A stretch of DNA of 50,547 nt, taken from contig JAIESQ010000171.1 of the NCBI GenBank assembly GCA_019745975.1, positions 1-50,547 on the forward strand, written 5' to 3'. The notes beneath the pieces were generated by a model. That model was not told the origin of the DNA and ran no database searches. It worked only from the letters and a program-made list of their open reading frames with translations. Below, one piece after another: positions 571-42,340 of the stretch. A program made the position numbers and the translations under genes. The DNA comes from Pirellulales bacterium (lineage in GTDB: Bacteria; Planctomycetota; Planctomycetia; Pirellulales; JAEUIK01). The number at the start of each line of letters is the position of its first letter. Position 1 is the first letter of the stretch.

Positions 571-741
571 AGTCTTGGATGCAAAACTTCCCTTGGACGC
601 AACTTGGACGCAAGCGCTCGACGATTTGCGTCCAAAAACAACTCGTGTCAACGAAAGGACTTAACTGCGTGTAACAGCCTCTTTGGACGCATTGGACGCA
701 AATTCCCGGACAATCTTATTCTGGGCCCCCCCAGATGACGG
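571..741 (-). repeat. GCGTCC-motif element, copy A
   Basis: About 170 bp that aligns along its whole length, in reverse orientation, with 26218-26390. On the plus strand TTGGACGCA occurs at 593-601, 604-612, 683-691 and 692-700. A variant TTGGATGCA lies at 575-583, and the inverted TTGCGTCCAA at 626-635. A GC-rich palindrome (TCTGGG..CCCAGA) lies at one end near 719-734. No protein is encoded convincingly. The element sits about 170 bp upstream of the secreted propeller gene at 911. Whether it is a structured RNA, a multi-site protein-binding region or a non-autonomous mobile element cannot be decided from one window. Confidence 0.8.
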
Positions 742-3044: not shown

Positions 3045-4931
3045 CTAGCGGCGGATTTCCTGGCCGGCGACCGGCTCGAGGAAGCAACGCCGCATGCGAT
3101 CGATGAACGGGTCGCCATGCGAGACTTCGCGGGCGAAGGTGCTCAGTTCGTCGAGCCGCAGGTTCCACAAGCGGGCGGTGCGGTCGTCGCCGGCCGTGAC
3201 CAGCCAGTGATTGTCGGAGCTGACCGCCAGACATTGCACCGCGCCGGAGTGGCCGCGCAGAATAATCGGCCAGGATGCAGCGGCTGGGTTCGTCAGGTCC
3301 CAGATTCGCGCCGTTTGGTCGAGACTGCCCGTTACCAAGCGGCGACTGTCGGGCGAAACCGCCAGCGTCTGAATCGAGGCCGTGTGCCCTTCAAGCACAT
3401 AGGCTTTCTCGCTCGGATCGGCGGCCGTCATGTCCCAAACACGCGCAGTTTTGTCTTCGCCCGCCGTGATCGCCCAATGGCCGTCGGGGCTGAACGCCAC
3501 GGCGCGAATCCAACCGTGGTGGCCGCCGAGCACGATTGACTCGCGGCTGGGATCGGCGACGCCCAGGTTCCAGAGTCGCGCCGTCGAGTCAAAGCTGCCT
3601 GTCAGCACCAAACGTCGATTCGGGGCGATCGCGACCGCCTGCACCGGTTCGGTATGACCAGCGAGCACGATGGCAGTCGAGCTCGGATCGGCGGCGTCGA
3701 GGTCCCAGACGCGTGCCGTGCGGTCGAAGCTGCCGGTGACCAGCCAGCGACTGTCGGGGCTGATCGCCGCAGCCTGGATCGATTCGTCGTGCCCGATGAG
3801 AACCCGGACGTTCGCGGCCGGATCGGCGGCCGTCAGGTCCCAGACGCGCGCCGTGTTTTGCTTAAGCGTGAAACCACCACTGGTGCTCACCAGCCAGCGC
3901 CCGTTGGGGCTGATCGTGACCGCGGTGATGCGACCTTCGTGGCCGCGCAGCACTGAGACCGCGGTGGCGGGATTCTTGGCTTTCAGGTCCCACAAGCGCA
4001 CGGTGCCGTCGTAGCTTCCCGTCGCCAGCCAGCGGCCATCGGGGCTCATGGTGACGGCACTCAAGCGACTTTCATGGCCCGTGAGCACCACGGGAGCGGA
4101 CGACGGATACTGGGCGGTCAGATCCCACAATCGCGCCGTGCCGTCGTAGCTGGCTGTCACCAACATCCGCCCGTTGGCACTTACGACAACCGCCGAGACG
4201 CGATCCGTGTGGCCGGCCAACGGACGATCGTCGAGAGTCAGCAAGGCGTCGCGCAGCGATTGTTCGGCCGCGGGCAAGGGGGGCTCGGCGGCCTCCATGG
4301 CGATTGCAACCGCTTCGCTCGCCAAGGCCGCGCTACGCTGCGGGGCTGCGGGCAGGAGCTGCTGCGATTCCTCGCTGAGGCGCGTCGCCACGGCCACGCG
4401 CACGCGGCGCTCGGCGTCATTGCGCTCGGCGACGACATGTTCGCAGCGCTCGTCAGCCGCGGTGATCCGCGTCTCGGCTACCTTGAGTGTATCCGAGACG
4501 CGCCACGCCATGACGCCGCTGGCAAGTGCTCCGCCAACCAGGAGCATAATCGACGCCGCGAGCGCGAAGCTCGGGCGGTAGCGGAAAGGAGATGCAGGGT
4601 CGGCAGGTGGCAATTCGAGCTGCGGCCGGGCAAGCTCGCCGCGCGGCGGCTCGGCGATCCAGTGTGTCGTTCGCTCGTTGATGGGAGCAACCGGGCGGCG
4701 CACTCGCGTCGGCGGCACTGGTTCGGAATGCCGCGATTCGACATACCGCGAGTTGACCCCCACGCTTTCGGCGGAGAATCGCAGTTGGCATTCGCCGCAC
4801 GTGACCATGCGATCGGCGAAAAGTTGTGCCGGATCGATGGGAGAGCAGCAGAGCGGACACGACATCCGCAATGCGGCCGGCTGCGAAGGCAAGCCGACTA
4901 CCGAGAACTTCGACCTAGGCTTCGACGTCAT
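3045..4931 (-). CDS. Membrane-anchored WD40-repeat protein with N-terminal zinc ribbon
   Basis: A 628-residue protein. Residues ~25-50 hold a zinc-ribbon-like CPLC...CGEC pair. A single transmembrane helix lies near 120-145 (FALAASIMLLVGGALASGV). A short coiled region (AETRITAADERCEHVVAERNDAERRV) follows. Eight WD40 repeats follow to the C-terminus, each starting GH and ending in 'ARLWDL' or a close variant. The third repeat carries an insertion (GGFTLKQ). The repeats are predicted to form a propeller outside or inside the membrane; topology is not certain. In planctomycetes such zinc-ribbon/TM/WD40 layouts often accompany Ser/Thr kinases, but no kinase domain is present here. M23 (4865) is an alternative start. 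The partner is unknown. Confidence 0.85.
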   Translation of the reverse strand: MTSKPRSKFSVVGLPSQPAALRMSCPLCCSPIDPAQLFADRMVTCGECQLRFSAESVGVNSRYVESRHSEPVPPTRVRRPVAPINERTTHWIAEPPRGELARPQLELPPADPASPFRYRPSFALAASIMLLVGGALASGVMAWRVSDTLKVAETRITAADERCEHVVAERNDAERRVRVAVATRLSEESQQLLPAAPQRSAALASEAVAIAMEAAEPPLPAAEQSLRDALLTLDDRPLAGHTDRVSAVVVSANGRMLVTASYDGTARLWDLTAQYPSSAPVVLTGHESRLSAVTMSPDGRWLATGSYDGTVRLWDLKAKNPATAVSVLRGHEGRITAVTISPNGRWLVSTSGGFTLKQNTARVWDLTAADPAANVRVLIGHDESIQAAAISPDSRWLVTGSFDRTARVWDLDAADPSSTAIVLAGHTEPVQAVAIAPNRRLVLTGSFDSTARLWNLGVADPSRESIVLGGHHGWIRAVAFSPDGHWAITAGEDKTARVWDMTAADPSEKAYVLEGHTASIQTLAVSPDSRRLVTGSLDQTARIWDLTNPAAASWPIILRGHSGAVQCLAVSSDNHWLVTAGDDRTARLWNLRLDELSTFAREVSHGDPFIDRMRRCFLEPVAGQEIRR

Positions 4932-8014: not shown

Positions 8015-9109
8015 ATGACGTCCGGCGGCGCGAACGACTCAGCGAGCGCTGCGGCACAACACCGCAGGTCGATCCGCGCCTGGCTCGAGCTGGTGCGACT
8101 CCCCAACGTGTTCACGGCGCTGGCCGACATTCTGCTCGGTTTCTACTTCACGCACGAGCTGCATGCCACCGAGGAATTGTGGCCCGCGCTTGCGCTGCTG
8201 TTGATTTCGTCGGCGGCGATCTACACGGCCGGCATGGCGCTGAACGACTATTTCGATCGCGCCGTCGATGCGCGGTTGCGCTCCGGGCGGCCGATTCCCT
8301 CGGGGCGCGTGAGTGCGCCGGCGGCAGCGCGGCTCGGTTGGAGCTTGCTGGCGATTGGCTTTGTCGCGGCCGCCGGGGCCGGTATGTACGCCGCGCGTGC
8401 AGACGTCGGATCGCCGAGCAATGTTCTGGAGACCACCGCACTGCTGGACCAGCCAGCAGTGGCACCCGTGGTTGCCGGACAGTCGATTGCAATGGATTCG
8501 CAGGTGCCCGCGTGGCGGCCGGGGCTTTTTGCCGTGCTGTTGATTGCGTCGGTGGTCGGTTACGACGCGCTGTTGAAGCGCACGCTCCTGGGGCCACTGG
8601 CGATGGGGGCTTGCCGCTTCTTCAACGTGTTGTTGGGAATGAGCCTGGCGGCTGGCGCGTTGCACCCCGTGCCTTACGTGGTCGCCGGCGGGATTGGCGT
8701 TTACATCGTCGGCGTCACCTGGTTCGCGCGGCGCGAAGCGATCGTTGGCCGGCAGTTGGAACTAGCAATGGCGGTGTTGGTGATGTTCGGCGGGCTGGCA
8801 CTGCTGGCTTGGTTTCCCAGCCTGGCCGACGATCGGCTCTCGGAAGTGAGCCAGCCGACGTACACCACGCCCGAGCGCTGGTGGCTGTTGATGGGGCTGT
8901 TGGGTTCGGTGATCGCCTGGCGCGTGGTGGGCGCCGTCGTCGATCCGCGGCCTGAGCTGGTGCAGTTCGCCGTGCGGCAGTGCATCATCTCGCTGGTGAT
9001 TCTGGATGCGTCGGCCTGCTTCGTAGTGCGTGGCATGCCGGCGGCCGCGATCATTCTGGCGCTGTTGGCTCCCTTGATGATTCTGCAGCAGTGGTTTTAC
9101 TCGACATGA
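8015..9109 (+). CDS. UbiA-family prenyltransferase, EboC-like
   Basis: A 364-residue polytopic membrane protein, about eight or nine helices. Residues ~75-85 hold the first Asp-rich motif NDYFDRAVD, which binds prenyl diphosphate through Mg2+. It is followed by SGRPIPSGR, typical of UbiA enzymes. The second site is reduced to YDALLKR followed by MGACRFFNVLLG, as in the EboC group. It would transfer a prenyl group to an aromatic or cyclic acceptor that I cannot name. Between helices at residues ~130-172 there is an odd hydrophilic insertion (ARADVGSPS...DSQVPAW). Part of it, LLDQPAVAP, is encoded by a REP-like repeat also found in intergenic DNA. The reading frame stays open. Confidence 0.85.
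   Translation: MTSGGANDSASAAAQHRRSIRAWLELVRLPNVFTALADILLGFYFTHELHATEELWPALALLLISSAAIYTAGMALNDYFDRAVDARLRSGRPIPSGRVSAPAAARLGWSLLAIGFVAAAGAGMYAARADVGSPSNVLETTALLDQPAVAPVVAGQSIAMDSQVPAWRPGLFAVLLIASVVGYDALLKRTLLGPLAMGACRFFNVLLGMSLAAGALHPVPYVVAGGIGVYIVGVTWFARREAIVGRQLELAMAVLVMFGGLALLAWFPSLADDRLSEVSQPTYTTPERWWLLMGLLGSVIAWRVVGAVVDPRPELVQFAVRQCIISLVILDASACFVVRGMPAAAIILALLAPLMILQQWFYST
8438..8467 (+). repeat. REP-like palindrome inside the UbiA coding region
   Basis: GCACTGCTGG and CCAGCAGTGGCACCC form the unit, which differs from the intergenic copies at 35487-35516 and 42301-42330 by only a few central bases. It is in frame and encodes ALLDQPAVAP within a loop insertion. Confidence 0.8.
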
Positions 9110-26217: not shown

Positions 26218-26390
26218 AATGTCACGGGGGTCCCCCCAGAATAAAATTGCCCGGGAATTTGCGTCCTAACCGTCCTAAGCGGCTGTCAAAAGTCGTTAAG
26301 TCTTGTCGCAGCAACGAGTTATTTTAGGACGCAAAACTCAAAACCGTTGCGTCCTAGATCGTCCTAAGGGAGGTTTTGCGTCCTAAGCAC
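26218..26390 (+). repeat. GCGTCC-motif element, copy B
   Basis: Homologous over its whole ~170 bp to 571-741. It holds TTGCGTCCTAA at 26259-26269, CGTCCTAA at 26271-26278, inverted TTAGGACGCAA at 26324-26334, TTGCGTCCTA at 26347-26356, CGTCCTAA at 26360-26367 and TTTTGCGTCCTAA at 26374-26386. A GGGGG-T-CCCCC palindrome lies at 26226-26236. Compared with copy A, every motif carries one extra T (GTCCTAA for GTCCAA). The GTTAAGTC and ACGAGTT segments between motifs are also conserved. Confidence 0.85.
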
Positions 26391-26650
26391 TGACCTCGCG
26401 CCAAGGCGCAAAGGCGCCAAGAACCCGAGTTGTTGGTCCGCAATCCCGTTCGGTCTCCTGTTCTCCTTTCTCCTGTCCTGTGCTGAGCTTGCCTGACCTG
26501 AGCCCTTCAACTTCGTTCGGGACAAGCAGCGTCGAAGGGCCGAAGCATCACCCCGGCTCAGCCGCAGGCCGTGGGGGTATTCCAAATTAAATATTGTGCA
26601 ATTGTGCGTCCGGCGCGGCGTTTAGCGTCCAGGCCGGCGGATTACCAATT
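26391..26650. other. Intergenic region with short repeats
   Basis: This runs from copy B to the PEP-CTERM promoter. It includes a GGCGC-rich run (CGCGCCAAGGCGCAAAGGCG at 26397-26416) of a type seen in many bacterial intergenic regions, and a pyrimidine-rich TTCTCCTTTCTCCTGTCCTG near 26460-26480. No gene was recognised. A 73-residue minus-strand frame here is probably chance. Confidence 0.4.
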
Positions 26651-26734: not shown

Positions 26735-27672
26735 ATGCATCGCACGATTCTGGCAGTCGTGTTGATTTCCGTCGCGCTCGTGGGCACATCGCGCGCGGCG
26801 ACCATTCAGTTTCTCACGCCGGCAGGGTCGTCGCTGGGGGTGGCTTACGGCGTCGATGGGCTGAACGTCGTCGGGCAGGACGTGGCCCAGCGCGGCTTCC
26901 TCTACAACGGTGCCACCAAGACCTACACGGTCATTCAGCCGCCAGGGGGGGGGTGGATATCGCCGCCAGAGGAATATCAGGCAACACGGTCGTCGGCTAC
27001 TACGTCAATTTTGGTGTGAATCATGGGTTCGTCTACGACGGCGCAAACTACACGACGTTCGATGTTCCTGGTGCCTTGGGCACATCGCTACTCGGCATAT
27101 CTGGCAACAAGTATGTTGGCACTTACGCCGATGCTTCCAAGCTGCTGCACGGTTTCTTATATGACGGCACGAACTACACGACGCTCGATTTTCCCGGCGC
27201 CAAAGTCACTCGTCCCTACGACATTTCGGGCAACCTCGTCGTTGGCTCCTATGAGGACTCCAAGAACCGCGTGCACGGGTTTGTGTACAACGGCACCACC
27301 TGGACCACGCTCGACGACCCGTTTTTTCTAAGCGCCGGGGACACCGTCGTTTATGGCATCGATGGTAGCAAGATCGTCGGATACACTTCCGCGAACAGCG
27401 GTAGCATTATTGCCGCCATCATGTACGACGGCGCCACTTATGCGCATCCCTTCGGCATTGAATCAGAGTTCATGGGAGGCCACCACTTTTACGGCATTTC
27501 GGGGAACCGCATTGTCGGTGAGTACAATGACCGGCCGTTCGTGTACATCATTCCCGAGCCAGCGACGTTCGTGCTGGCCGCGCTCGGCCTGCTAGCTTTG
27601 TTCCCGCTCGCCAGGCGGAAGCGCAATCGCGCCTCGCCGCGTCGGCGCATCCCGCGGTTGGCGGCACACTAG
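26735..27672 (+). CDS. PEP-CTERM exported repeat protein, frame broken at a run of nine G
   Basis: Two frames make one protein of about 310 residues. Frame 1 (26735-27019) starts after GGGAGG with a signal peptide (TILAVVLISVALVGTSRAA) and the first GVDG..VVGQ..GFLYNG unit. At G9 (26945-26953) the frame is lost. Frame 2 (to 27672) continues the same repeats: GISGNTVVGYY..GFVYDGANYTTFDVPG, repeated about five times. It ends in the sorting signal PEPATFVLAALGLLALFPLARRKR. Seven or ten Gs would restore the frame. It could be phase-variable, a pseudogene or an assembly error. The HAF-like repeats ('GF.YdG..yttld.Pga') mark a secreted or surface protein of unknown role. The stop codon lies inside a repeat element. 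Confidence 0.8.
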
Positions 27673-27782
27673 CCCGACGCGCAGCGAGGGACCACGCGGG
27701 CAGACCCTTGCTGGCGCCGCGGGCTAGTGTTCGATCCAAATCAGTGCCTCTGCGCAAGAAAGGTTCCTGACACCTTTTCATC
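27627..27782 (+). repeat. 156-bp direct repeat, copy 1
   Basis: Identical at nearly all positions to 27820-27975; period 193 bp. It contains an 11-bp inverted repeat, ACACTAGCCCG at 27666-27676 and CGGGCTAGTGT at 27720-27730, and ends in AGGTTCCTGACACCTTTTC. The last 15 codons and stop of the PEP-CTERM gene lie in this copy, so the basic tail after the sorting signal is partly repeat-encoded. Confidence 0.9.
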
Positions 27783-27819
27783 CCCTTTTCATCCCCGTGT
27801 TCAGTCGCCGACTTCGCTC

Positions 27820-27975
27820 GCGCGCCTCGCCGCGACGGCGCATCCCGCGGTTGGCGGCACACTAGCCCGACGCGCAGCGAGGGACCACGCGGGCAGACCC
27901 TTGCTGGCGCCGCGGGCTAGTGTTCGATCCAAATCAGTGCCTCTGCGCAAGAAAGGTTCCTGACACCTTTTCATC
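27820..27975 (+). repeat. 156-bp direct repeat, copy 2
   Basis: Second copy of the unit at 27627-27782, with a T-to-A difference in the CGCG(T/A)CGG segment. The same 11-bp inverted repeat is present. The 37 bp between the copies is unrelated. It looks like a recent tandem duplication of a dispersed element. Confidence 0.9.

Positions 27976-35473: not shown

Positions 35474-35553
<80 letters not shown>

Positions 35554-42139: not shown

Positions 42140-42340
<201 letters not shown>

What the first reader, a model, noticed from the sequence alone, without database searches (positions are those of the whole stretch)
26218..26390. Two-copy 170-bp element in which every internal motif has changed in step
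The segment aligns along its whole length with 571-741 reversed. Between copies, all six GCGTCC motifs differ in the same way: GTCCAA (copy A) against GTCCTAA (copy B). The five direct motifs and the single inverted motif therefore remain complementary inside each copy (TTGCGTCCAA/TTGGACGCAA versus TTGCGTCCTAA/TTAGGACGCAA). Conserved segments between motifs (CCGGGAATTTGCGTCC, GTTAAGTC, ACGAGTT, AAGGGA-GTTTTGC) and a GC palindrome at one end are also kept. Coordinated change across six sites in one element suggests that a factor or RNA pairing recognises the motif, or that the copies undergo concerted correction. It could be an undescribed structured RNA, a partition/replication-like array or a non-autonomous element. 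None is proven.
Basis: partly seen in the sequence, partly recalled or inferred. Interest (0 to 1): 0.88.

Follow-up and report, generated by a model that had tools for sequence, protein, structure and literature searches.

The report
Scattered orphan phage-type replication origins
The 170-bp element is one of about 118 copies, scattered between the genes of one bacterium, of what looks like a virus or satellite replication origin without its replication gene; it comes in four versions in which every protein-binding site carries the same subfamily-specific letters, so the cell may be full of decoy or hitchhiking origins.

Summary
The genome holds at least 118 copies, not two, in four subfamilies. 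Each A, B or D copy is 151 bp with six CGTCC motifs (five direct, one inverted). The base after CGTCC is T, A, C or G by subfamily: 63 of 70 A/B/D copies carry one letter at all six sites, against 4.9 by shuffling. It is a substitution, not an inserted base. There is no RNA covariation. All but two copies fall cleanly between predicted genes.

Outside this genome the same architecture (9- to 11-bp phased motifs, both orientations) lies directly 3' of D5/DUF5906, VapE or DUF927 helicase-primase genes in phage contigs and in another planctomycete's integrative element. In related viruses the whole array changes motif in step. Papers describe iteron origins of SaPI/PICI/SCCmec elements with this position and layout, bound by the initiator helicase. 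Viral arrays exist with the B and C specificities, and partly with A. The host has no intact cognate helicase that I could find.

Best reading: orphan iteron-type origins, kept in step by initiator specificity. Identity is well supported. Whether they are decoys (PER-like immunity), hitchhikers or relics is inferred. How they spread is unknown.

The parts
26237..26387 (+). Element core, subfamily A (motif letters TA), 151 bp
   Evidence: profile R1 hit 26237-26386, E 3.1e-33; 95% identical copies elsewhere
26226..26236 (.). G/C palindrome GGGGGTCCCCC at the 5' boundary; tract varies from copy to copy
   Evidence: listing of 5' flanks
26261..26266 (+). iteron M1 GCGTCC(TAA)
26270..26275 (+). 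iteron M2 CCGTCC(TAA), 9 bp from M1
26277..26326 (+). segment between the two iteron groups; in A copies about 42% G+C against 64% for the window; includes a hypervariable stretch of fixed length
26327..26332 (-). iteron M3 (inverted), GGACGC preceded by TTA
26349..26354 (+). iteron M4 GCGTCC(TAG)
26359..26364 (+). iteron M5 TCGTCC(TAA), 10 bp from M4
26378..26383 (+). iteron M6 GCGTCC(TAA)
573..723 (-). Element core, subfamily B (motif letters AA), 151 bp
   Evidence: profile R1 hit 574-723, E 4.3e-34; about 13 further B-type copies
721..734 (.). G/C palindrome CTGGGGGGGCCCAG at the 5' boundary of the B copy
694..699 (-). iteron M1 GCGTCC(AA)
685..690 (-). iteron M2 GCGTCC(AA)
628..633 (+). 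iteron M3 (inverted relative to the element), GGACGC preceded by TT on the element strand
606..611 (-). iteron M4 GCGTCC(AA)
595..600 (-). iteron M5 GCGTCC(AA), 11 bp from M4
577..582 (-). iteron M6 GCATCC(AA), core mutated
26398..26450 (.). 3' junction to another intergenic repeat (CTCGCGCCAAGGCGC... family), also found next to other copies

Best explanation
Each copy is an orphan, iteron-type replication origin of the kind used by phages, satellites and integrative elements whose initiator is a D5/P4-like (SF3) primase-helicase. Two sets of short binding sites (M1-M2 and M3-M6), phased at about one helical turn, flank an AT-richer segment. In the mobile elements the helicase gene lies directly upstream; here it is absent. 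The six sites carry the same letters because one initiator with one specificity must bind them all; four subfamilies mean four initiator specificities (CGTCC followed by TA, AA, CG or GG). Shown here: the family, its copy number, its in-step letters, its architecture, and the position of the matching arrays 3' of such helicase genes in viruses and in another planctomycete. Inferred: that these helicases, entering the cell on phages or satellites, bind the chromosomal copies; that this titrates them away from the invader's own origin (decoy, like lactic-phage PER), or lets the copies hitchhike on its replication; how copies spread.
For: Copy number 118. In-step letters 63/70 versus 4.9 shuffled; within subfamily A, motif positions diverge 1.2% against 9.8% elsewhere, singletons 0.083 against 0.356 per site, p=0.002, although copies are only 82-97% identical. 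Fixed 151-bp length and 9-11 bp site spacing. Unbiased profile hit in a different family, G321 (E 2.5e-7): same head, same 9- and 11-bp spacings, inverted site included, in the 3' end of a DUF5906/D5_N primase gene and just before a tyrosine recombinase gene. Viral arrays 3' of D5_N+DUF5906 genes. In homologous viral loci the same place holds 9-12 CTGTCC instead of GCGTCC. Named phages AmM-1, RcapNL, Mae-JY02, Nsp-JY21, rho14 and a Listeria phage have 7-12 copies of their own hexamer there, mostly with 9-bp steps. Arrays with specificity AA (12/12, 5 nt after a DUF5906 gene), GGG (after D5/Pox_D5 and VapE genes) and TC/TA (after D5) found in IMG/VR. Papers: SaPI and Cch2-type helicases bind iterons directly downstream of their gene through a C-terminal domain (PMC7581432); PICI origins always have two iteron sets flanking an AT-rich region (PMC6092414); PLE RepA and ori covary (PMC8263062).
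Against: No cognate initiator found in the host genome (DUF5906 none; helicase profile hits only a decayed remnant of other specificity). Similarity to the viral arrays is in motif, spacing and order, with modest sequence homology; several viral hits were found with a motif pattern, so their motif is selected for. No viral match for subfamily D (L285 inconclusive). Four of ten named phages tested show no array or only a weak one. No binding, replication or protection data. The variable G/C tract and the joined 3' repeats are not explained.
Confidence: 0.72

Rival explanations
1. MITE-like non-autonomous mobile elements: the six motifs are subterminal binding sites of a transposase or tyrosine recombinase, and the four subfamilies follow four recombinases.
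For: Many intergenic copies, chimeras, precise 5' end; G321 array lies next to a tyrosine recombinase gene and arrays could be attP arm sites.
Against: No terminal inverted repeats or target duplication seen; no recurrent neighbour gene; in viruses the constant neighbour is the primase-helicase, not an integrase; the host's three weak integrase homologues have no CGTCC array near them.
Confidence: 0.15
2. Binding array for a resident chromosomal protein (nucleoid, partition or transcription regulator) that has duplicated into four specificities.
For: Strictly intergenic, motif positions constrained in each copy.
Against: Lineage-specific: none in 56 relatives with the strict pattern and only G321 among 396 genomes of the order; no orientation preference relative to neighbouring genes; does not explain matching viral arrays.
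Confidence: 0.08
3. Structured non-coding RNA with the motif pairing to its inverted copy.
For: M3 can pair with any of the five direct motifs; G321 and viral arrays also have both orientations.
Against: Weak folds and no covariation outside the motifs; subfamily C lacks the inverted motif because its central segment is inverted and repeated (read by eye).
Confidence: 0.03
4. Relics: dead origins left by past integrative elements, amplified by recombination, with no present role.
For: A decayed integrative element with a truncated primase, a C-terminal DNA-binding remnant, five ACGCGT iterons and a recombinase lies at C154:1-5557.
Against: Motif positions stay far more conserved than the rest in old copies; 118 near full-length copies without genes are not expected from decay.
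Confidence: 0.15

Closest known systems
SaPI / PICI replication origin with Rep helicase (including SCCmec Cch2, D5_N type)
   Same: Multiple short iterons in two sets flanking an AT-rich region; directly 3' of the SF3 helicase gene in the viral and G321 relatives; initiator-specific motifs (PMC6092414, PMC7581432)
   Different: Here more than 100 copies scattered in one chromosome, no helicase gene attached, four specificities side by side
Satellite phage P4 alpha protein and its ori/crr type I repeats
   Same: Primase-helicase of the same D5/P4 class; arrays of short direct and inverted repeats (own knowledge)
   Different: Octamer differs; two origin regions per element, not dispersed on a chromosome
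PER, phage-encoded resistance by cloned phage origin (phiSfi21, Lactococcus)
   Same: Non-coding origin sequence that in extra copies draws replication proteins from an infecting phage (PMC6356513)
   Different: PER is one origin on a plasmid or prophage; here a dispersed chromosomal family, effect untested
PLE RepA/ori and the origin-directed nuclease Odn of phage ICP1
   Same: Initiator DNA-binding domain and iterons change together; origins are targets in satellite-phage conflict (PMC8263062)
   Different: RepA_N family initiator, long semi-palindromic iterons
REP/BIME and MITE intergenic repeats
   Same: Short, intergenic, many copies, joined to other repeats
   Different: No palindromic REP core or terminal repeats; ordered phased binding sites with in-step letters

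Membership tests
Iteron-type origin of SF3/D5 helicase elements | Multiple short repeats phased at about one helical turn, in two sets | tested here: met
   M1-M2 9 bp, M4-M5 10-11 bp, fixed positions
Iteron-type origin of SF3/D5 helicase elements | AT-rich segment between the sets | tested here: met
   segment 43-88 has 42-47% G+C, window 64%; only moderately AT-rich
Iteron-type origin of SF3/D5 helicase elements | Lies directly 3' of the initiator helicase gene | tested here: not met
   Met by the viral arrays and G321, but the host copies have no such gene. Hence called origin-like, orphan.
Iteron-type origin of SF3/D5 helicase elements | Initiator binds the repeats and replication starts there | not testable with these tools
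   needs gel shift and replication assay
Iteron-type origin of SF3/D5 helicase elements | All repeats change together with the initiator | tested here: met
   63/70 uniform in host; GCGTCC versus CTGTCC arrays in homologous viruses
MITE | Terminal inverted repeats and target-site duplication | tested here: not met
   none visible in aligned flanks
Structured RNA family | Covarying base pairs | tested here: not met
   no compensatory changes in 44 A copies; Rfam none
PER-type origin decoy | Extra origin copies lower phage replication | not testable with these tools
   needs infection assay

The most novel reading that the evidence does not exclude
A host chromosome keeps over a hundred origin decoys in four specificities as a standing, DNA-only defence that titrates the initiator helicases of incoming phages and satellites, updated by swapping iteron letters in whole arrays.
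Probability: 0.27. Interest if true: 0.92.

Novelty: new variant of a known kind. Interest (0 to 1): 0.74.

Why it matters
It links a puzzling repeat family to a known replication mechanism and suggests either a DNA-only anti-phage defence or a new class of minimal parasite that carries nothing but an origin. It also gives a rule usable elsewhere: many D5/P4-type primase-helicase genes are followed by a phased repeat array whose letters report the initiator's specificity, so origins of many phages and satellites can be read off, and origin-protein coevolution can be studied in four natural variants inside one genome.

Tried and rejected
Structured RNA: single-sequence folds, RNAalifold per subfamily and a pairwise covariation scan gave nothing. 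Rfam: no hit. Transposon with a nearby gene: no recurrent neighbour protein among 211 predicted genes. A shared promoter or terminator role: both gene orientations are equally common on the left side. A GTDB pattern scan gave only two unrelated hits. G235/G304 profile hits lie in protein-coding-like sequence and are chance-level. G321 primase not found again in 196 genomes of the order at E 1e-30. Viral hit L134, and L209, L278, L247, L280, look like chance or in-frame coding repeats and were set aside. The three weak host recombinases have no CGTCC array near them. BLAST of a viral array against named phages: none. An idea that the elements are integron attC sites was dropped: copies are dispersed, not arrayed.

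Full report
Observation. The two window copies are real, at 26237-26387 (+) and 573-723 (-), with a 164-nt ungapped inverted match at 74%. They are not a pair. Searches of the host genome (6.98 Mb, 204 contigs) found 137 sites of GGAATTTGCGTCC with at most one mismatch, against 2 for the reversed control, and a sequence profile made from 31 copies found 118 copies at E up to 0.01. This is a lower bound, because only 150 candidates were scored. Strict-pattern search of 56 relatives found none; GTDB contigs gave two unrelated hits.

Four subfamilies. I fetched and aligned 96 copies. The variable letters follow the constant CGTCC: TA in A (about 45 copies), AA in B (11-13), CG in D (12) and GG in C (about 25 fetched). 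All four bases occur at the first position. In A, B and D, 63 of 70 copies carry one letter at all six motifs, the inverted one included; shuffling letters between copies gives 4.9 on average and never more than 11 in 2000. The exceptions are mostly recombinants, such as L044 (A at M1-M2, B at M3-M6) or L114 and L054 (A with B at M6). So the change is a substitution in step, not an insertion.

Geometry. A, B and D are all 151 bp from CAGAATAA to four bases past the last GTCC, with compensating one-base indels; M1, M2, M3 and M6 keep their places. M1-M2 are 9 bp apart and M4-M5 10 or 11, about one helical turn. Spacers of fixed length vary freely in sequence, conserved blocks lie next to the motifs, and the central segment has 42-47% G+C against 64% for the window. 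In C the central segment appears inverted and tandemly repeated, so all its motifs point one way, spaced 10 bp (read by eye). This geometry suits protein on double-stranded DNA. RNA folding is weak and there is no covariation among 44 A copies.

Setting. By a simple coding-potential gene call, all but two copies fall cleanly between predicted genes; the two overlaps are an uncertain gene start at the window's B copy and a low-scoring short ORF in L081. Either orientation of the left neighbour is equally common, and no neighbour protein family recurs. The left boundary is a G/C tract that differs from copy to copy (GGGGGTCCCCC, GGGGGGGCC, CCCCCCCC). The right end usually joins one of a few other intergenic repeats. 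I could not explain either.

Not a fresh burst. A copies are 82-97% identical, yet motif positions diverge 1.2% against 9.8% elsewhere, and private changes are 0.083 per site against 0.356 (p 0.002). Something keeps the motifs intact, either function in each copy or selection among active copies. The comparison includes hypervariable spacers, so it is supportive, not decisive.

The lead outside. Among 396 genomes of the order, the profile found one further convincing place: G321, another family, E 2.5e-7. It matches in head, 9-bp M1-M2, inverted M3 and 11-bp M4-M5, with letters CC, and a second head faces it. It lies in the 3' end of a gene for a primase-helicase (DUF5906 6e-12, D5_N, Toprim), directly before a tyrosine recombinase gene, with rho beyond (rho recognised by reading the protein). 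That is the layout of an integrative element with its replication module.

Viruses. A pattern scan of IMG/VR gave four contigs with such arrays. In L135, L136 and L137 the array lies right after a D5_N+DUF5906 gene (phrog 'DNA primase'); in L138 it follows a Toprim primase gene, but the array-bearing ORF had no family hit. Homologues of the L135 primase hold an array in the same place in eight of nine loci: GCGTCC-type in two, CTGTCC-type (9-12 copies, background 3-4) in six. So in viruses too the whole array changes in step. In ten named phages with related primases, six have 7-12 copies of a hexamer of their own at that place, mostly with 9-bp steps and in both orientations: AmM-1 GCCTCC, RcapNL CGTCCC, Mae-JY02 CTTCCC, Nsp-JY21 CCTCCC, rho14 AGTAAC, a Listeria phage AGGGCA; Pthi1 is weak, and RR1-A, VroomVroom and phiMiGM15 show none. 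For RcapNL and Nsp-JY21 the hexamer count alone is not exceptional against other windows of the same locus, and the phasing is the stronger sign.

The window's own specificities exist in viruses. Scans for the A, B, C and D letters and an array screen gave L174 with 12 of 12 motifs AA, starting 5 nt after a DUF5906 gene (1.5e-22); L248 with AA after a DUF927 helicase; L281 with GGG at 10-bp spacing after a D5/Pox_D5 helicase with a weak RFX-type winged-helix hit at its C terminus; L282 with GGG after a VapE helicase (1e-62); and L160 with TC/TA after a D5 helicase. Every array with both orientations and six or more matching motifs in that set lay next to such a gene, apart from L247, whose motifs look like an in-frame coding repeat. 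For D the single hit, L285, is inconclusive.

Literature. SaPI and SCCmec Cch2 helicases, of which Cch2 and SaPI5 Rep are D5_N-type, bind iterons directly downstream of their gene, Cch2 through its C-terminal domain (PMC7581432). PICI origins always have two iteron sets flanking an AT-rich region immediately 3' of rep (PMC6092414). In PLE satellites the initiator's DNA-binding domain and the origin change together and are swapped as a module, and phage ICP1 has a nuclease aimed at them (PMC8263062). A non-coding phage origin in extra copies gives resistance, the PER system (PMC6356513).

Host side. No DUF5906 match in the host at E up to 0.1, with controls ringing. A profile of eight helicases found only the C-terminal DNA-binding part in C154 (E 0.001). 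There a truncated primase, this remnant, and a recombinase stand in the G321 order, and five ACGCGT sites lie within 69 bp at the remnant's 3' end, against at most one per 80 bp in the window. So such elements have entered this lineage, with another specificity, and their rule of an array after the helicase holds there too. The 118 dispersed copies have no initiator of their own that I could find.

Conclusion. I read the element as an orphan, iteron-type, D5-class replication origin. In-step letters follow from one initiator having to bind all sites. What the orphan copies do is open: decoys for incoming initiators (about 0.3), selfish minimal origins that are carried along (about 0.3), relics (about 0.15), or something else. 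Their mode of spread is unknown.

Noticed in passing
G000 C154:1-5557 (L288): Decayed integrative element: HTH genes, truncated primase, D5-type C-terminal remnant, five ACGCGT repeats in 69 bp, tyrosine recombinase.
   Followed up: partly
3' flanks of many copies, e.g. L010, L021, L052: Repeat with inverted ends CGTTAGCCGCGGAGCTTGCTCCGCG...CCGCGGCTAACAAG (REP/BIME-like) joined a few bases after the element's last motif, across subfamilies.
   Followed up: no
26398-26450 and flanks of other copies: Second tail family CTCGCGCCAAGGCGCAAAGGCGCCAAGAA, often followed by CCGCAGATTTCGCAG.
   Followed up: no
5' flanks of copies: G/C tract just before CAGAATAA varies in run and strand (G then C, all C, all G with T), as if made by template switching at a hairpin or by insertion into G/C hairpins.
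   Followed up: no
L107, L102, L072, L017, L013: Two elements of different subfamilies close together in the same orientation (D then C, A then C, D then A).
   Followed up: no
27628-27975: Two 155-bp direct repeats 99% identical, 193 bp apart, near a 126-bp repeat series at 27022-27327.
   Followed up: no
8438-8467, 35487-35516, 42301-42330: 30-nt repeat GCACTGCTGG..CCAGCAGTGGCACCC, partly palindromic, several copies.
   Followed up: no
3295-4156: 135-bp repeats, probably protein-coding.
   Followed up: no
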